From Streptococcus himalayensis (GTDB lineage: Bacteria; Bacillota; Bacilli; Lactobacillales; Streptococcaceae): a stretch of DNA of 64,000 nt. Below the pieces are notes generated by a model, which saw nothing but the letters and a program-made list of their open reading frames with translations, was not told the DNA's origin and made no database searches. Below are positions 6,144-60,496 of this stretch, piece after piece; position 1 is the stretch's first letter, and each line of letters opens with the position of its first letter. The position numbers were made by a program, and so were the translations under genes. The stretch lies in the NCBI RefSeq assembly GCF_001708305.1, contig NZ_CP016953.1, positions 323,001 to 387,000 of the forward strand, in the 5' to 3' direction.

Positions 6144-8579
6144 TTACACTATGTCAAACTTGAGTTTATCGCCTTTGACACCGACTTTCAAGCTCCTTCC
6201 TTCGCCTAGTTCTCCTTTTAGCAGTAACTCTGATAGCGGATCTTCGACTTGGGTTTGGAGGGTTCGTCGCAAGGGTCTGGCCCCCATTTCTGGGTCATAA
6301 CCTTCTTTTGCTAGCCATTTGAGAGCAGATGGTTGGAATTTCAATTCCACATGCTTGTCTCTGAGTGCTGCAATTAATGGACCTACCATGACTTTGACCA
6401 CTTCTTGCATATGTTCACTCGAGAGACTATGGAAAACAACCTTTTCATCAATCCTATTGATAAATTCTGGACGATAGGCTTTTTTCAACTCTTCTAACAT
6501 GCGTTTTTCCATATTGGCATGGTCAAAACGTACATCACGTGCCCCAAATCCAACGGTTTTGTCATCTCGAAGGCTGGTCGCCCCAAGGTTGCTGGTCATG
6601 ATAATCAAGGTATTTGAAAAATCAACCTTGCGTCCCTTGCTATCAGTCAAAACGCCGTCATCCAAGACCTGCAAGAGCACATTGAAAATATCTGGATGAG
6701 CCTTTTCCACCTCATCAAAGAGGAGGACAGAGTAAGGCTTGTTGCGGACCTTCTCTGTCAATTCGCCGCCCTCGTCATAGCCAACATAGCCCGGAGGAGC
6801 CCCGTTCAAACGACTTGCTGCAAATTTTTCCATATATTCACTCATGTCAAAGCGAATGAGAGCTGATTCATCATCAAACAGCAATTCAGCCAAAGCCTTA
6901 GCCAGCTCTGTCTTTCCGACCCCTGTCGGCCCCAGAAACATAAAGGAGCCGATAGGACGCTTGCTGGTTTTCAAGCCGGATTGATTGCGACGAATCGCAC
7001 GGCTAATCGCTGAAATTGCTTCGTCTTGTCCGATGATACGCTTATGCAGTTCTGTTTCCAAATTCAAATATTTCTTGGCATCTGTCTGACTTAACTTTTG
7101 AACAGGAATACCTGATAAACGGCTCAAGGTCGTCAAGATATCCGCCTCTTCCACCTTTAGGGTAAAGGGTTGCGGAGATAGCTCTTTTTTCAATAGGCGA
7201 GACACTTGTTTGAATTGTTGATCCATCACCGCCACATCCAGTTCTGTCAACTCAGACTGGGACATATCCCCCTGTTTTGCTCCCTTATTTTGCACCGTGG
7301 CTGCTGCCTCATCTAGCAAATCAATAGCCGAATCTGGCAAGTGCTTACTGGTCAAATACCGATGGGCATAGGTGACTGCCGTTTCAATCGCTTCATCTGA
7401 AATCACCACCTTGTGATGGGCTTGATAGCTTTCCCGCAATCCCTTCAAAATTCGAATGCTGTCTGCCACACTTGGCTCATCAATGGTGATTTTCGCAAAA
7501 CGACGAGAGAGAGCTGCATCTTTTTCGATATGCTTTTGGTATTCTTCCTGAGTCGTTGCACCAACCGTCCGAAGGGTTCCACGTGCCAAGGCTGGCTTGA
7601 GAATATTTGCCGCGTCCAAGGTCGAATCAATTCCGCTTCCAGACCCCATAATGGTATGCAACTCATCAATAAAGAGAATAACACGGCCGTCTTCTTCGAT
7701 ATCTGTGATGATATTATTCATCCGCTCCTCGAAATCTCCACGGAAACGCGTCCCTGCTACCACATTCATCAAATCTAGCTCGAGTACCCGCATTTTAGCC
7801 ATCTCGTTAGGAACAGATCCACTTGCCACTCGTTGGGCAAGACCTAAAGCCAAAGCTGTTTTTCCAACTCCCGCATCTCCGACCAAGACCGGATTATTTT
7901 TGGTTTTTCGGCTCAGGATTTGAATCATTCGCGAAATCTCTTCGTCACGACCAATGACCGGCTCTAATTGGCCAGTTCTTGCTAGTTCGGTCAAATCACG
8001 GGTATAGTCTTCCAGACCACCGCTTTGCGGTTGTGGCATCCCCATCATATTGGCCATATTTTGCTTGTTTGGATTAGGAGCTTTCTGCAAGTTTCGAATG
8101 GCTTTCCAGGCTTCCTTGTCCCAACCCGCACGTTGGCTCAGATTTTTCCGCAAGTCTGCAATCCGAACAGCCTTATCCGTCTCTTCATAGATAAAACCTG
8201 CCTGCTCTAAAATATGAGCCACAAGACTACCACGATCCAAAAACATCGCTAAAAGGACATGCTCAGTTCCTATACTTTTTGAACGAGTAGCCGAGGCAAT
8301 CTTCTCTGCTGTTGCAAACAATTCCTTCAAGCGATAAGAAAAGGCAAGTTTTCCTGGTTTCGCTTCTTTTTGATAGGCTTTTCCTGTCACAGTATAGGCC
8401 GCTTCTTCCAGATTGTCCACCTCCAGAGGATAATCATTGAGGACCGAGCCTGCTACACTATAGGGATTATTGGCAATCGCGATTAAGACCTGCCAAGACT
8501 CCAGATAGTCCGTTTCAAAATGACTAGCTAACACTTGAGCCGACGCCAAGCTCTGCTCCAAGGCCTTTGAATACTTCAT
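6144..8579 (-). CDS. clpC: ClpC AAA+ unfoldase of the Clp protease
   Basis: 811 residues, a Hsp100 ATPase that unfolds substrates for ClpP. An N-terminal Clp repeat domain (about 1-145) precedes two AAA+ modules: the first with Walker A GDAGVGKTALA and Walker B VILFIDELH, the second with GPTGVGKTELAKAL and a C-terminal D2-small domain ending RPLRRTLQTQVEDPLSE. A short middle domain separates them, as in ClpC rather than ClpB. It follows ctsR with a 3-bp gap and shares its promoter and CtsR operator, so it is a class III heat-shock gene. A strong terminator follows. Confidence 0.95.
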   Translation of the reverse strand: MKYSKALEQSLASAQVLASHFETDYLESWQVLIAIANNPYSVAGSVLNDYPLEVDNLEEAAYTVTGKAYQKEAKPGKLAFSYRLKELFATAEKIASATRSKSIGTEHVLLAMFLDRGSLVAHILEQAGFIYEETDKAVRIADLRKNLSQRAGWDKEAWKAIRNLQKAPNPNKQNMANMMGMPQPQSGGLEDYTRDLTELARTGQLEPVIGRDEEISRMIQILSRKTKNNPVLVGDAGVGKTALALGLAQRVASGSVPNEMAKMRVLELDLMNVVAGTRFRGDFEERMNNIITDIEEDGRVILFIDELHTIMGSGSGIDSTLDAANILKPALARGTLRTVGATTQEEYQKHIEKDAALSRRFAKITIDEPSVADSIRILKGLRESYQAHHKVVISDEAIETAVTYAHRYLTSKHLPDSAIDLLDEAAATVQNKGAKQGDMSQSELTELDVAVMDQQFKQVSRLLKKELSPQPFTLKVEEADILTTLSRLSGIPVQKLSQTDAKKYLNLETELHKRIIGQDEAISAISRAIRRNQSGLKTSKRPIGSFMFLGPTGVGKTELAKALAELLFDDESALIRFDMSEYMEKFAASRLNGAPPGYVGYDEGGELTEKVRNKPYSVLLFDEVEKAHPDIFNVLLQVLDDGVLTDSKGRKVDFSNTLIIMTSNLGATSLRDDKTVGFGARDVRFDHANMEKRMLEELKKAYRPEFINRIDEKVVFHSLSSEHMQEVVKVMVGPLIAALRDKHVELKFQPSALKWLAKEGYDPEMGARPLRRTLQTQVEDPLSELLLKGELGEGRSLKVGVKGDKLKFDIV

Positions 8580-41215: not shown

Positions 41216-41310
41216 TATTAGAGCTGTTCGGAAACTCGATGAGTTATAACTAGATGATTTTTTTAACGGCTTGTGCTTTAAAATGGAGTATTCCTGAACA
41301 AGTCTATTAA
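41216..41310. repeat. MITE-like repeat, family C
   Basis: Starts TATTAGAGCTGTTCGGAAAC and ends CCTGAACAAGTCTATTA; the ends are imperfect inverted repeats. The remaining bases to 41443 show no feature. Confidence 0.65.
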
Positions 41311-55918: not shown

Positions 55919-56590
55919 TTATCTCATCGTTATCTGCAACATGGTCACAAAACTATTCCAAGCAATGTGAAGTAGAATCGGATAATAAATCGACTTGGTT
56001 TTCCGACACAAGCCAGCAAATAGCAGACCACCTCCAAAATAAACCACGAAACTAGACACACTCCAACCATGCTGTAACACATGAATCAAGCTAAACAAGG
56101 CTGAGGAAATCAAGACATCCAAATGATACTTCTGAAAGGATTGAAGGCTTGCCATGAGCAATCCACGGTAGAGCAACTCCTCACAAATCGGACCGACAAG
56201 GCTCATAGTTAAAATGAATTGTATAAAAAAGGCAGTTCCTGATAGATCCTGAAAGAGTAGTTCTCCTCTCGCTTGATTCTCTGGCAAAGGCAAAAAGAGG
56301 ACAGTCAAGTACCACCAGAAATACATGAGCACAAAAGTCCCCACCGTAACTCTTAGATAACTCCATTTCCACTCAAATCGGCGAAAGATTTCACCTTCTC
56401 CCATCAGATATAGCAAGACAACCGCTCCGACTCCTTGAATAGCGGTCAATAAAAGCCACACGGTAAAATAACCCGTGGCAGGTAAAGACCGAATAAACGT
56501 CAAAGCCATAACCTCTTGCACCCCAAACTGAGAAAAGAAAAGCAAGAAAATGATTAAACTGTAAATCCATACTTGCCTGCACTTAGACAT
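55919..56590 (-). CDS. CPBP (CAAX/Abi) membrane protease, cassette 1
   Basis: 223 residues from the ATG at 56590 behind AGGAGGGATATTT. Seven or so membrane helices. The CPBP active-site motifs are CEELLYRG (EExxxR), SLIHVLQHG (first His motif) and LLHIAWNSF (second). Such proteins near bacteriocin genes act as self-immunity or as processing proteases. It lies 140 bp downstream of a GG-leader peptide gene, the same pairing as in two neighbouring cassettes. Confidence 0.9.
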   Translation of the reverse strand: MSKCRQVWIYSLIIFLLFFSQFGVQEVMALTFIRSLPATGYFTVWLLLTAIQGVGAVVLLYLMGEGEIFRRFEWKWSYLRVTVGTFVLMYFWWYLTVLFLPLPENQARGELLFQDLSGTAFFIQFILTMSLVGPICEELLYRGLLMASLQSFQKYHLDVLISSALFSLIHVLQHGWSVSSFVVYFGGGLLFAGLCRKTKSIYYPILLHIAWNSFVTMLQITMR

Positions 56591-56730
56591 AAATATCCCT
56601 CCTAGATTAAAGATAATATAACAAAAAAGGAGAGAGCCTCGCTTAAAATGATTTATAATTTTGCGGTGAAACTCTACTCCCCTATTGAGCAATATTTTTT
56701 AGATGTCAACCCTAACTCTACAAGCTATAT

Positions 56731-56949
56731 TTACGGCTTTTTATAATAACTACTAGGAATATTGCCCCACCAGCCTAGACCATTATACATAGAGCTATAA
56801 TAATTGGGTACAGGGCCACTTACGCCATAACCCATAATGGAAGGACCTCCACCTCCATACGGATTAGGAATGGGTTGATACCCTCCCTCAACTTCCATCA
56901 ATTCCTCTGCTGTCAACTCCATAACTGCTGCGTTTTTTAAATTAAGCAT
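56731..56949 (-). CDS. Double-glycine leader peptide, cassette 1 (bacteriocin/RiPP-like)
   Basis: 72 residues with RBS AAAGGAGAAACG. The leader ends MELTAEELMEVEGG, a typical export leader for C39-peptidase ABC transporters. The mature part (about 48 residues) is rich in Pro, Gly and Tyr: YQPIPNPYGGGG, then GYGVSGPVPNYYSS, WWGN and a KKP tail. It has no Cys, so it is not a lanthipeptide. The first 35 residues are identical to the peptide of cassette 3. Novel as far as I can tell. Confidence 0.8.
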   Translation of the reverse strand: MLNLKNAAVMELTAEELMEVEGGYQPIPNPYGGGGPSIMGYGVSGPVPNYYSSMYNGLGWWGNIPSSYYKKP

Positions 56950-57020
56950 AACGTTTCTCCTTTATGTATTTTATAATTCATCATTCCTAGCTAGCATACG
57001 GATGTATAAATTACATCCTC

Positions 57021-57102
57021 AGTATAACACTTAAATAGAGAAAATCTAAAAAATCGCATATTTGATATTTTTTCGTTCAAAAATTTCTTATTTGCGATTT
57101 TT
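57021..57102 (-). promoter_or_regulatory. Peptide-1 promoter with Rgg-type dyad
   Basis: On the minus strand an extended -10 (TGTTATACT, -10 at 57021-57026) is preceded by an imperfect inverted repeat AAAAATCGCAAATA...TATGCGATTTTTT (about 57049-57102). Almost identical to the region upstream of peptide 3. Confidence 0.65.
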
Positions 57103-57127
57103 AGTGTTCAGACCTTTTTGCGAATAT

Positions 57128-57232
57128 AATAGGCCTATTCGAAAACTCGACGAGGTAATTTTAAACCAAGTGTATAAATGAGTTTTTAACCTGCTGTGCC
57201 TCAAAATTGAATGTTTCTGAACAAGTCTAATA
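57128..57232. repeat. MITE-like repeat, family C
   Basis: AATAGGCCTATTCGAAAACTC at the left and CTGAACAAGTCTAATA at the right are imperfect inverted repeats. A nearly identical copy is at 58321-58426. Confidence 0.7.
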
Positions 57233-57242
57233 AAAAGCGAGT

Positions 57243-57938
57243 TTATCGAAACGTAAAATAAAACCAATTATAAATAAATATCCAAACAGGAGTCAGAAAA
57301 ATCCCTAAATTCCAACATGCATGTAAACAGATTGTCCACTTCAAACTATTAGAAAAACGGTAAAACCCTCCCATAATCAAGCCAAATAAACTATAAAATA
57401 GAAAAGTATTGAAATGTGGAGTTCCTAAGATTATATGCCCCACTCCAAATAGTGCTGCCGAAAAAATTACATCTAAATAATAAGGAGAATGTTTAAAAAA
57501 TTGATTCATCACATACCCTCTATGGAAAAATTCTTCTAATATCGGAGTTACGACAACTAAAATAAATCCGTTTCCTAGAGTATACAACCATTCAACACCA
57601 TAAGAAGAAATCTTTCGATAAAGTGTGGCATTCATACCTTGAATATAGGGGATTGGAAAGAAGCGATTTCGAAACCAAATCATCACATACATCATTAGAA
57701 GTGCGACGATAAATACCAGCAAATCTTTCCGACGCCATCTCCCCTTTTTCCAAATCAAACTCTGAGTGTCCTCATCTAAAAGACGATAACTAACTACTGA
57801 TAAGAAAATTAATTGAACCGAAACAAGTAAACTAACGGAGTCCAGACCTGTTTTCATCCAAATAGCTAAAAAAAGAGCGAGGCGTTCTGGAACCAAAATC
57901 ACCATCAACCCTAATAGAACTACTATAATTTTTTTCAT
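57243..57938 (-). CDS. CPBP membrane protease, cassette 2
   Basis: 231 residues if it starts at the ATG at 57938. The frame is open to 57986 with two other ATGs but no good RBS (only GGTTGA), so the start is uncertain and coupling to the peptide-2 stop at 57955 is likely. Many membrane helices. CPBP motifs EEFFHRG, GVGHIILG and HACWNLG. Partner of the peptide immediately upstream. Confidence 0.85.
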   Translation of the reverse strand: MKKIIVVLLGLMVILVPERLALFLAIWMKTGLDSVSLLVSVQLIFLSVVSYRLLDEDTQSLIWKKGRWRRKDLLVFIVALLMMYVMIWFRNRFFPIPYIQGMNATLYRKISSYGVEWLYTLGNGFILVVVTPILEEFFHRGYVMNQFFKHSPYYLDVIFSAALFGVGHIILGTPHFNTFLFYSLFGLIMGGFYRFSNSLKWTICLHACWNLGIFLTPVWIFIYNWFYFTFR

Positions 57939-57954
57939 ATATTCAACCGTTTTA

Positions 57955-58143
57955 TTAACCAACTCTAATACCATGTGCCCAAGCATTCATTCTTGCAGCC
58001 ATAGAAATTGGACTATAAAATTCTGACATATACGGAGGTGGAGGAAATTCTCCATCGTAAATACTATACCATGCTCCTGCTCCATCTATATTCATCATTT
58101 CTTCATCGGTCAATACGATAAAGTTATTTTTATTTGTTTCCAT
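57955..58143 (-). CDS. Leader-type secreted peptide, cassette 2
   Basis: 62 residues with RBS AAGGAGAAAG. The leader-like part ends FIVLTDEEMMNIDGAG, with GA instead of GG at the expected cleavage site. The rest is Pro/Tyr/Met-rich (EFPPPPYMSEFYSP, MNAWAHG). Its core is unrelated to peptides 1 and 3, but it sits behind a related promoter region and before a CPBP gene. Confidence 0.75.
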   Translation of the reverse strand: METNKNNFIVLTDEEMMNIDGAGAWYSIYDGEFPPPPYMSEFYSPISMAARMNAWAHGIRVG

Positions 58144-58214
58144 AATCTTTCTCCTTTATGTATTTTATAATTCATCATTCCTAGCTAACATACGGATCCA
58201 TAAATTACACTCTC

Positions 58215-58296
58215 AGAATAACACTTGAATAGAAAAAATCTAAAAAATCGCATATTTGATATGTTTTCATTCAAAAATTTCTTATTTACGATTTTT
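58215..58296 (-). promoter_or_regulatory. Peptide-2 promoter with diverged Rgg-type dyad
   Basis: Same layout as for peptides 1 and 3, but the -10 is TATTCT (58215-58220) and one operator arm has a substitution (TTTACGATT for TTTGCGATT). Confidence 0.6.
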
Positions 58297-58320
58297 AGTG
58301 TTTAGAGCTTTTTGCGAATA

Positions 58321-58426
58321 TAATAGGCCTATTCGAAAACTCGACAAGGTAATTTTAAACCAAGTGTCTAAATGAGTTTTTGACCTGTTATGCTTCAAAA
58401 TTTAAGGTTTCTGAACAAGTCTAATA
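58321..58426. repeat. MITE-like repeat, family C
   Basis: Nearly identical to 57128-57232 and in the same position relative to the upstream dyad, so the repeat was duplicated with the cassette. Confidence 0.7.
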
Positions 58427-58471
58427 AAAAGCGAGAGATATTTCATCAAACTAGCAACTAAATCTCTTTCA

Positions 58472-59116
58472 CTATGCAAAAAAGAGCATAATAATCCTTA
58501 AAAATAGATTATAAGACATATGACTAACAATACTGTAATAAACAGAACCTGTCTTTTTAAAAACCCAGACCAGAATCCAACCTATTCCGAAATAACGGAT
58601 GAAATCAGTCCAGAGAAATCCATGCTGTAAAACATGAATCAAGCTGAATAAGCTCGCCGACACAAACCTATCTAAAAAAGGAATCGGGCATGATTTAAAA
58701 TTAAATAGTATAAGCCCTCGAAAAACTAATTCCTCTGTAATCGGAGCGATAATCGCTGCATAAACAAAAAATAAAGCTGTTAAATCATCTTGATTCAGTT
58801 GATTTAAGGCCTCTTGATTACGAGTCACGGGCATCACCAAGGAAGTCAGGAAAGACCAAACTAAAATCAATCCAAAAGCTCCAAGTAACACCCCTAGAAA
58901 TCGCCATTTCCATTTCGGTTTTTTCAGAGCTTCATGCTTATATAAAAAATATCCTGCCAATAGGCCATGAATTGCTACTAGACTATATCCGACAAAATAA
59001 TAAACTACATCAGATAAATTAGACAATATCGGTAAACTGAAGATAAACGGTATTCCACACTGATAAGAAAAAAGGAGAATCACCATAAAACTCCAATTTC
59101 GAATTTGATTTTTCAC
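58472..59116 (-). CDS. CPBP membrane protease, cassette 3
   Basis: 214 residues. The GTG at 59116 behind a strong AAGGAGG is chosen over ATG 59170, which would overlap the peptide gene by 32 bp and has no RBS. Membrane helices throughout, with motifs EELVFRGL, SLIHVLQHG and SHMSYNLF. Closer to the cassette 1 protease than to that of cassette 2. Confidence 0.88.
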   Translation of the reverse strand: MKNQIRNWSFMVILLFSYQCGIPFIFSLPILSNLSDVVYYFVGYSLVAIHGLLAGYFLYKHEALKKPKWKWRFLGVLLGAFGLILVWSFLTSLVMPVTRNQEALNQLNQDDLTALFFVYAAIIAPITEELVFRGLILFNFKSCPIPFLDRFVSASLFSLIHVLQHGFLWTDFIRYFGIGWILVWVFKKTGSVYYSIVSHMSYNLFLRIIMLFFA

Positions 59117-59138
59117 AGATAATCCTCCTTGAAATATT

Positions 59139-59360
59139 TTAAGGTCGCTTCTTCCCAAATAAAGCTCCACCGAGATCTACTGCCCAACTCCATGGACTTC
59201 GATTAGGAGATAGATTGCTACCTGCCCAACCTGGATAAACCCCTATAGAGCCTAGGCCTCCACCTCCATACGGATTAGGAATGGGTTGATACCCTCCCTC
59301 AACTTCCATCAATTCCTCTGCAGTCAACTCCATAACTGCTGCATTTTTTAAATTAAGCAT
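59139..59360 (-). CDS. Double-glycine leader peptide, cassette 3 (bacteriocin/RiPP-like)
   Basis: 73 residues with RBS AAAGGAGAAACG. The first 35 residues, through the GG site and YQPIPNPYGGGG, are identical to peptide 1. The core then differs (GVYPGWAGSNLSP, SPWSWAVDLGGALFGKK). No Cys. Together with peptide 1 this shows a conserved leader and variable core. It is the cassette nearest to shp and rgg. Confidence 0.8.
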   Translation of the reverse strand: MLNLKNAAVMELTAEELMEVEGGYQPIPNPYGGGGLGSIGVYPGWAGSNLSPNRSPWSWAVDLGGALFGKKRP

Positions 59361-59431
59361 AACGTTTCTCCTTTATGTATTTTATAATTCATCATTCCTA
59401 GCTAGCATACGGATGTATAAATTACATCCTC

Positions 59432-59541
59432 AGTATAACACTTAAATAGAGAAAATCTAAAAAATCGCATATTTGATATTTTTTCGTTCAAAAATTTCTT
59501 ATTTGCGATTTTTAGTGTTCAGAGCTTTTTGCGAATATAAT
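59432..59541. promoter_or_regulatory. Divergent peptide-3/shp control region with Rgg-type dyad
   Basis: Minus-strand extended -10 TGTTATACT (59432-59437) for the peptide; plus-strand TATAAT (59536-59541) 29 bp before the shp ATG. An inverted repeat AAAAATCGCA...TGCGATTTTT (about 59459-59513) lies between. Both promoters lack a good -35, as expected for activator dependence. Confidence 0.65.
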
Positions 59542-59570
59542 AAATATAACGTTTATATTGGAGGTTTTAT

Positions 59571-59651
59571 ATGAATAAACGATTAGTCTATATACTTTTT
59601 GATATAGTTGCTGTTATTATTATCTACTTTCCACTATTTCCTCAAAGTTAA
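59571..59651 (+). CDS. shp: SHP-like short hydrophobic pheromone precursor
   Basis: 26 codons behind a perfect RBS (GGAGGTTTTAT). It encodes a basic start (MNKR) followed by a hydrophobic end, DIVAVIIIYFPLFPQS, the form of Rgg-associated SHP pheromones, which are trimmed (by Eep) from a conserved acidic residue and re-imported by the oligopeptide permease. It is convergent with rgg and overlaps its 3' end by 18 bp. The control region is shared with peptide 3. The mature peptide is not predicted with confidence. Confidence 0.65.
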   Translation: MNKRLVYILFDIVAVIIIYFPLFPQS

Positions 59652-60496
59652 CTCATATTGAGTTAACTTCATTCTTAATAATGCAACTAGTTGCTCATTA
59701 TTAAGAAGCTCCAGAGATTGAATAAAATTTTCAATCTCTTTTTTATTTTTTCCATTTCTTTCTATAAAGTCCTTAACATATACTAAAAATTTCAGAAGAA
59801 TTTGTTCAAAAACGTCGTATGGAGTTAAAATATCTTCTAATTCTTTCTTAAAAATGGGTATATAGTCTAATTTTTTACGTTCTATCATCTCGGAGATTAA
59901 ATTTAGTAATATATTTTTAATGTATAAAGTATTCTGTAGTAAATTGCGAAATTCTTCTGATTTTCCGAGTAATTCCTGTCCCAAAAAGAGCAAATCTTGA
60001 TCCGTGAAAAATGGCATGGTATTGCAGAAAAGATAGAGTTCAAACCACGTCCAAGACTCAATAGCATAGAGATATTCCGTGATAAACACCTTATCATCAT
60101 CGAGTAACGGATAACTAGGGTCTAGCGAATGTAAGGCACTCTTGATCACAATGCCATTTAATCTAGCATAGCGATTGTGCTCATCTTGCTCTAATGTTTC
60201 TAATAATAATTTTAAAAAATCCATCTCCTGATGGGCGAAAGCCGCAACAATTTTTCTACCCATGCGGATATGTTTGGCTTCCCTATATCCATTTAATTTA
60301 TGAGCAAATTCATCAAAGGTCATATTGATGCCATCAATGGCTAAGAGCAAGCGGTCTGCAGAAAGCATAGACTGTCCTAACTCAAACTTAGATAGTTGAG
60401 AAGCCGTTAACGCTCCTTGGCAACTTCTTTTTGCTTAACTCCTCGTGCAAGTCGTAACTCCTTGTAAAATTCACCCAATTCTATTTTTTCTGCCAT
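59634..60496 (-). pseudogene. Rgg-family regulator with a one-base frameshift
   Basis: The ATG at 60496 (RBS AGGTGA) opens the HTH domain: MAEKIELGEFYKELRLARG then VKQKEVAKE, ending at TAA. The frame resumes as ALTASQLSKFELGQSMLSAD and continues as a full Rgg helical repeat domain (about 240 residues). Restoring one G in GCCAAGGAGCG (plus-strand 60415-60416) rejoins the frames. Rgg proteins bind SHP peptides and activate adjacent promoters. The break may be real or a sequencing error. Confidence 0.88.

What the first reader, a model, noticed from the sequence alone, without database searches (positions are those of the whole stretch)
55919..60496. Rgg/SHP-linked array of three leader peptides, each paired with a CPBP protease
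Three tandem units [leader peptide + CPBP membrane protease] lie behind near-identical control regions, next to an SHP-like gene and an rgg gene. The peptides are Cys-free, unusually Pro/Tyr/Gly-rich and resemble no class I-II bacteriocin or known Rgg-linked RiPP I can name. No exporter, radical-SAM or LanM gene is in the island, so export probably uses a ComAB/BlpAB-type transporter elsewhere. Each CPBP could be self-immunity or a maturation protease specific to its peptide.
Basis: partly seen in the sequence, partly recalled or inferred. Interest (0 to 1): 0.92.

Follow-up and report, generated by a model that had tools for sequence, protein, structure and literature searches.

The report
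Expanded VP1 peptide and CPBP array
A Streptococcus carries three small secreted-peptide genes, each with its own membrane protein of the CPBP family, behind three copies of one switch; comparison with relatives suggests that the membrane proteins protect against the peptides, which would recast a known 'signal peptide' family (VP1) as possible weapons.

Summary
The array is real: three [double-glycine-type peptide + CPBP] units, each behind a copy of one operator, beside an shp gene and an rgg gene. It is not an unknown system but an enlarged, divergent form of the Rgg144/SHP144/VP1 locus (same place after tsaD, same convergent shp, same operator). Peptides A and C have VP1-type leaders; unit B resembles a briC/blp-type cassette behind the VP1 operator.

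Comparison partly answers the CPBP question. In 24 non-redundant pairs the peptide core tracks its partner CPBP (Mantel r 0.70; 0.75 given Rgg and TsaD); leaders do not track the CPBP. Among 44 tsaD-linked loci, 22 have peptide and CPBP, 11 CPBP only, 10 neither, and one peptide only, where the contig ends. CPBPs of peptide-less loci look conserved, and 14 of 14 unpaired CPBPs of 224-225 aa follow remnants of cores of the matching type. That fits self-immunity better than maturation; a receptor stays possible. A few other loci carry ThiF- or RamC-type genes at the same operator, so the site looks like a swap-in slot. No activity was tested.

The parts
60407..60496 (-). first piece of rgg (29 aa, start of the HTH), out of frame with the rest
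   Evidence: ORF list; weak HTH matches below cut-off; resembles the start of intact relatives
59634..60368 (-). second piece of rgg (Rgg_C domain)
   Evidence: PF21259 133.8 bits, TIGR01716 170.7 bits; 56-60% identical to Rgg of relatives
59571..59651 (+). shp-like gene (26 aa), overlaps the 3' end of rgg on the other strand
   Evidence: same geometry as shp of relatives; no family match
59460..59513 (-). operator A: imperfect palindrome with half-site TATCAAATATGCGATTTT
59139..59360 (-). peptide A (73 aa), VP1-type leader, Gly-Gly
58472..59170 (-). CPBP A (likely start near 59116)
   Evidence: PF02517 68.9 bits; motifs and tree
58326..58435 (.). dispersed repeat-like element upstream of operator B
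58243..58296 (-). operator B
57955..58143 (-). peptide B (62 aa), other leader, Gly-Ala; core resembles one core found at the accA-nusB (briC) position
57243..57986 (-). CPBP B (likely start near 57938), groups with briC-position and blp-type CPBPs
   Evidence: PF02517 60.8 bits; tree
57132..57241 (.). dispersed repeat-like element upstream of operator C
57049..57102 (-). operator C
56731..56949 (-). peptide C (72 aa), VP1-type leader, Gly-Gly
55919..56692 (-). CPBP C (likely start near 56590)
   Evidence: PF02517 76.7 bits; motifs and tree

Best explanation
An enlarged, divergent Rgg144/SHP144/VP1 locus. In relatives with an intact regulator, imported SHP would activate Rgg, which acts at a palindromic operator between shp and a double-glycine peptide gene. 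Here the operator block is present three times, each in front of a different core-CPBP pair, so one switch would drive three peptides. Transporters elsewhere in the genome would cut the leader and export the core, and each CPBP would protect the cell against its partner core. SHOWN by sequence: the array, the three operators, leader-type sequences, two C39 transporters in the genome, core-CPBP covariation, and CPBPs kept without peptides in relatives. INFERRED: Rgg binding at this operator, export, antibacterial action, immunity. In this strain the rgg frame is interrupted, so the array may be silent or under another Rgg.
For: Locus identity: tsaD-rgg-shp-peptide-CPBP order and shared operator; published Rgg144/VP1/CAAX linkage (PMC5913232 and PMC12647141, passages). 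CPBP role: core tracks partner CPBP, r 0.72 in 28 pairs and 0.70, or 0.75 given Rgg and TsaD, in 24 pairs; leader against CPBP r -0.04. Of 44 tsaD-linked loci 22 have both, 11 CPBP only, 1 peptide only (contig end), 10 neither. Median dN/dS 0.16-0.22 for CPBPs of the 11 peptide-less loci. Core remnants before 14 of 14 unpaired 224-225-aa CPBPs. CAAX proteases of the blp region are treated as immunity genes in PMC4517551 and PMC4860687 (passages).
Against: No killing or protection was tested, and the papers seen describe VP1 and BriC as biofilm and colonization peptides. Receptor-ligand coevolution would also give covariation and CPBP-only loci. 10 of the 11 CPBP-only loci lack shp with nearly the same junction, so they may stem from one event. 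22 of 37 unpaired CPBPs show no clear core remnant and one 222-aa CPBP breaks the length rule. Leader tracks core weakly (r 0.20, p 0.003). CPBPs A and C are only 33-41% identical to their nearest VP1-locus relatives. The rgg is interrupted.
Confidence: 0.55

Rival explanations
1. Ligand and receptor: the cores are pheromones and each CPBP is the membrane receptor or signal-relay protease of its own core; the array is a set of private channels. CPBP-only loci would be listeners.
For: VP1 and BriC are described as signalling peptides with several alleles and no known receptor (PMC7595303, passages). Core-CPBP covariation is what pherotypes would show.
Against: Some peptide-less loci keep up to four CPBPs of different lengths, easier to see as a stock of immunities. 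CPBPs of blp regions are treated as immunity genes. No downstream partner of such a receptor is visible in the locus.
Confidence: 0.22
2. Maturation: each CPBP trims or otherwise processes its own peptide after or during export.
For: One CPBP directly behind each peptide; CPBPs are proteases; covariation with the core.
Against: 11 of 44 loci keep CPBPs without any detected peptide, with low dN/dS; the C39 transporters should already remove the leader (family knowledge).
Confidence: 0.13
3. In this strain the array is silent and on its way to decay, because the regulator is broken. This does not exclude the other readings for the family.
For: Interrupted rgg; relatives with decayed cores.
Against: Shp, three operators, three peptides and three CPBPs are all open or intact. 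Four other Rgg_C proteins over cut-off and one below are in the genome. The lesion could be recent or a sequencing error.
Confidence: 0.3

Closest known systems
Rgg144/SHP144/VP1 locus of S. pneumoniae and relatives (SPD_0144-0148; NF033772)
   Same: Place after tsaD, Rgg type, convergent shp, operator, VP1-type leaders of A and C, CPBP behind the peptide
   Different: Three live units, where the 34 fetched loci and the 44 named ones show at most two detected peptides (one two-hit locus is a split peptide and one a leaderless core); peptides far below the VP1 model's cut-off; interrupted rgg; unit B is not VP1-like
BriC and its downstream CPBP-type gene at the accA-nusB position
   Same: CPBP B groups with CPBPs there (support 0.97) and core B resembles one core found there, shuffle p 0.001
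   Different: Other genomic site and operator; no labelled briC sequence was available to align
blp bacteriocin-immunity region (CAAX proteases BlpY/PncO, PncP, BlpG)
   Same: GG peptides with CPBP genes treated as immunity genes; immunity genes outnumber peptides (PMC4517551, PMC4860687, passages)
   Different: Two-component control and a dedicated transporter there; Rgg/SHP operator and no transporter here
rtg locus (RtgR/RtgS with several GG peptides)
   Same: Rgg-type regulator and hydrophobic pheromone in control of several GG peptides (PMC7595303, passage)
   Different: rtg has its own ABC transporter; not compared by sequence here

Membership tests
VP1 (NF033772) | score over the curated cut-off of 85 bits | tested here: not met
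   A 27.5, C 25.7 bits, B no match
VP1 (NF033772) | VP1-type leader and start | tested here: met
   A and C match a profile of VP1-locus peptides at E 1e-8; B does not
Rgg144/SHP144/VP1 locus | place after tsaD, rgg with convergent shp | tested here: met
Rgg144/SHP144/VP1 locus | shared operator before the peptide | tested here: met
   three perfect half-sites; half-site with at most one mismatch in 44 of 44 tsaD-linked loci; aligned in 16 of 17 other upstream regions, not in L114's first peptide
Rgg144/SHP144/VP1 locus | intact Rgg regulator | tested here: not met
   two pieces in different frames
VP1 (function) | biofilm and colonization effects | not testable with these tools
   needs experiment
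BriC | place downstream of accA | tested here: not met
   unit B lies in the rgg-gapA interval of the window
BriC | core and CPBP kinship for unit B | tested here: inconclusive
   CPBP clade support 0.97; core shuffle p from 0.001 to 0.20 over seven cores, three of them near-identical; no labelled briC aligned
Class IIc bacteriocin (PF10439) | score over the gathering cut-off of 27.1 bits | tested here: not met
   C 17.8, A 15.4 bits, B none
CPBP (PF02517) | score over cut-off and catalytic motifs | tested here: met
   60.8-76.7 bits, EExxxRG and histidines
Bacteriocin with CPBP immunity | antibacterial activity relieved by the partner CPBP | not testable with these tools
   only genomic signs:

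The most novel reading that the evidence does not exclude
The Rgg144/SHP site is a swap-in slot for competing peptide systems: [GG peptide + CPBP] cassettes, ThiF-type or RamC-type genes behind one operator. VP1, and by kinship of the cassettes perhaps BriC, are narrow-range weapons with private CPBP immunity whose biofilm effects are secondary; strains that keep Rgg, operator and CPBPs but have lost peptide and shp are protected non-producers that could still react to neighbours' SHP.
Probability: 0.4. Interest if true: 0.8.

Novelty: new variant of a known kind. Interest (0 to 1): 0.62.

Why it matters
VP1 is listed as a pneumococcal peptide of more than 90% of strains with unknown transporter and receptor (PMC7595303, passages), and the CPBP genes behind it had no settled role in the passages I read. 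Covariation of core and CPBP, and CPBPs that outlive the peptide, turn this into a specific, cheap question: does a partner CPBP protect against its core? A natural array with three cores and three CPBPs under one operator is a good object for a cross-protection matrix.

Tried and rejected
Unknown RiPP class: rejected, because the locus is syntenic with the VP1 locus and has its operator. RNA element in the control region: no Rfam match up to E 0.5. Relatives of peptides A and B in the 5.8-billion-protein search: only the window's own peptides; the tool needs shared 5-residue words and similar length, so this is weak evidence of absence. Peptide C was searched only against 59 related genomes (itself, A, and one hit in G029). 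A labelled briC to align: none found after accA in the two genomes titled S. pneumoniae behind L126 and L129. Consensus promoter scan: 16 found against 18.4 expected by chance, so only the -10 shared with relatives is used. Pattern-based pairing missed peptides in L108, L124, L132 and L150; a profile search corrected the counts. shp calls in relatives rest on a simple rule and may miss some. The dN/dS figures use ungapped pairs of equal length with dS between 0.02 and 1. Structure prediction and fold search were not used. The species of the window was not identified.
Full report
WHAT IS THERE. Region 55919-60496 holds, leftwards from rgg, three units of a short peptide gene and a CPBP gene, all on the minus strand, and a short hydrophobic-peptide gene on the plus strand that overlaps the 3' end of rgg. 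The CPBPs belong to PF02517 well above cut-off and keep the EExxxRG and histidine motifs. Leaders end in Gly-Gly (A, C) or Gly-Ala (B). A and C are 99.0% identical in DNA over 289 nt, which cover operator, leader and first core residues, and then part; their CPBPs are 35% identical. A and B share 92.4% over 185 nt, up to about the start codon; their CPBPs are 23% identical. So one control block stands before three different core-CPBP pairs. The half-site TATCAAATATGCGATTTT occurs three times in the window against 0.01 expected and has no other perfect copy in the genome.

THE REGULATOR. The rgg frame is interrupted: a 29-aa piece with the start of the HTH (60407-60496) and the 244-aa Rgg_C piece (59634-60368) lie in different frames. 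Relatives have intact copies. A real lesion and a sequencing error cannot be told apart here. The genome has four other Rgg_C proteins over the cut-off and one below, so another Rgg could act; this is a guess.

WHICH SYSTEM. NCBIfam's 'peptide pheromone VP1' (NF033772) matches A and C at E 3e-6 and 1e-5, far below its cut-off, and not B. It matches 36 of 284 Streptococcus genomes at E 0.01, 17 over the cut-off, and none of 14 control genomes. I fetched larger stretches for 34 of the 36, all but G000 and G121; two of these (L064, L065) are not VP1 loci. Most of the rest show tsaD, rgg, a VP1-type peptide and one or more CPBPs. A scan of named genomes with an Rgg alignment gave 52 loci, 44 with tsaD beside rgg; the other eight (L151-L158, S. 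parasanguinis and the like, Rgg 44-45% identical) showed neither tsaD, operator, peptide nor CPBP and were left out of the counts. Where shp was found there, it overlaps or lies at the rgg 3' end, as in L129, titled S. pneumoniae, whose product ends SEWVIVFPFLINR, like SHP144 as listed in PMC13361665 (passage). The operator with a -10 of the type TGTTATACT is shared by the window's three copies (B deviates in the -10) and 16 of 17 other upstream regions; L114's first peptide is the exception. The half-site, with at most one mismatch, is found in 44 of 44 tsaD-linked loci. In print this is the Rgg144/SHP144/VP1 locus: Rgg144 raises VP1 and SPD_0145-0147, the table naming SPD0145-0148 CAAX proteases (PMC5913232, passages); vp1 (spv_0145) and spv_0146-0148 (vpoBCD/azlC) are listed as one locus (PMC12647141, passage). 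The primary VP1 paper is not held.

UNIT B. CPBP B groups with CPBPs from between accA and nusB and from a blp-like region, support 0.97, while CPBPs A and C group with the VP1-locus CPBPs, support 0.75. The accA-nusB site fits the published place of briC, 159 bp after accA (PMC8265628, passage; 155 nt in L088). Against seven cores found there, core B gave shuffle p of 0.001, 0.001, 0.0025 (three near-identical cores), 0.005, 0.009, 0.05 and 0.20; against VP1 cores the best p was 0.23 (not corrected for the number of tests). Unit B thus looks like a briC/blp-type cassette behind the VP1 operator, but no labelled briC was aligned.

WHAT THE CPBP DOES. First, covariation. In 28 VP1-locus pairs from the 34 fetched stretches (26 of them gave a pair), core identity follows partner-CPBP identity (Mantel r 0.72, p 1e-4) and leader identity does not (r -0.04, p 0.68); leader follows core weakly (r 0.20, p 0.003). 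For 24 non-redundant pairs (26 of the 28 had both rgg and tsaD; two duplicates removed) r is 0.70, and 0.75 after control for Rgg and TsaD identity; core against Rgg gives 0.01, core against TsaD 0.14 (p 0.03), CPBP against Rgg 0.12 (p 0.06), CPBP against TsaD -0.14. Core and CPBP travel together although leader and core are one gene. Second, presence. Of 44 loci, 22 have vp1 and CPBP, one has vp1 only (L139, contig ends about 700 nt after vp1), 11 CPBP only, ten neither (L141 near a contig end); Fisher p 3.8e-4 without L139 and L141. These loci are related, and 10 of the 11 CPBP-only loci also lack a detected shp with nearly the same junction, so events are fewer than loci. The 27 CPBPs of the 11 loci have median pairwise dN/dS of 0.16-0.22 by length group. 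Third, remnants. One search listed 41 unpaired CPBPs; four (L108, L124, L132, L150) have a peptide that my pattern missed, leaving 37. All 14 of 224-225 aa follow a core remnant of type A or A2 (E from 1e-17 to 5e-3), the types that go with 224-225-aa CPBPs in live units; A and A2 are not told apart by this. One 222-aa CPBP (L142) also follows such a remnant. The other 22 (221, 222 or 238 aa) show none (one at E 1.1), which serves as an internal control but also means that most unpaired CPBPs have no visible former partner. Peptides are lost and CPBPs stay, as expected of immunity genes; papers treat CAAX proteases of the blp region so (PMC4517551, PMC4860687, passages). A dedicated maturase should not persist alone. 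A receptor kept by listeners would look similar and is not excluded.

EXPORT. The island has no transporter. The genome has two C39-peptidase ABC transporters: one beside a 466-aa ORF (L174, partner not tested), one beside an HlyD-type protein in a blp-like region with GG peptides and a CPBP (L175). Which one exports the cores is unknown.

A SWAP-IN SITE. Of the ten loci with neither vp1 nor CPBP, L128 and L129 carry a 320-aa ThiF-type ORF (PF00899, E 5e-37, tested for L129 only) and a 412-aa ORF without a Pfam match that looks like a transporter by eye; L114 carries a similar pair besides two vp1 units. L147 carries a RamC_N-type protein (PF25816, E 3e-30), a kind of enzyme that makes lanthipeptides (family knowledge); L149 and, in two ORFs, L134 carry similar sequence, not tested against Pfam. 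L118 and L127 carry a small ORF with a signal-like start; L111, L136 and L141 show no such cargo (L141 only). So the switch serves different cargo in different strains.

HOW LIKELY. I take the array as an enlarged VP1-type locus with near certainty; immunity as the CPBP role 0.55, receptor 0.22, maturation 0.13. No activity, expression or export was tested. Searches of the held library showed me no paper that calls VP1 a bacteriocin or its CPBPs immunity proteins, but the library holds openly licensed papers only, and I saw listings and passages, no whole text.

Noticed in passing
L129 7908-10621, L128 8455-10621, L114 8465-10631: ThiF-type protein plus a 412-aa membrane-like protein at the Rgg144 site, in L129 behind a short ORF (7908-8072) ending in SAVPYSFQGHRLGGR: possibly a microcin-C-like cassette (recalled likeness; only the L129 ThiF match is from a call).
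   Followed up: partly
L147 8356-10281, L149 8416-10350, L134 8356-10280: RamC_N/kinase-type protein at the same site (Pfam for L147 only); in L134 it is split in two ORFs; a 40-aa ORF in L147 (8115-8237) with a Ser/Thr/Cys-rich end could be its precursor.
   Followed up: partly
window 57132-57241 and 58326-58435: About 110-bp element upstream of operators B and C but not A, with partial copies elsewhere in the genome at 75-90% identity (five matches, two of them in this window near 41251 and 38627); ends look like inverted repeats by eye, so perhaps a MITE.
   Followed up: partly
L088, L089 (between accA and nusB): Two tandem [GG peptide + CPBP] units at the position published for briC; many other genomes keep CPBPs there with no peptide found by a simple pattern.
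   Followed up: partly
L175 6268-7401 (own genome, blp-like region): Two paralogous GG-type peptides with Pro-rich C-termini (..CYEYGPAYPAPVLPCR) directly before a CPBP (PF02517).
   Followed up: no
L056/L114 and L050/L112: Loci with short extra Rgg_C fragments (76 aa) downstream among the VP1 units, a sign of repeated rearrangement.
   Followed up: no
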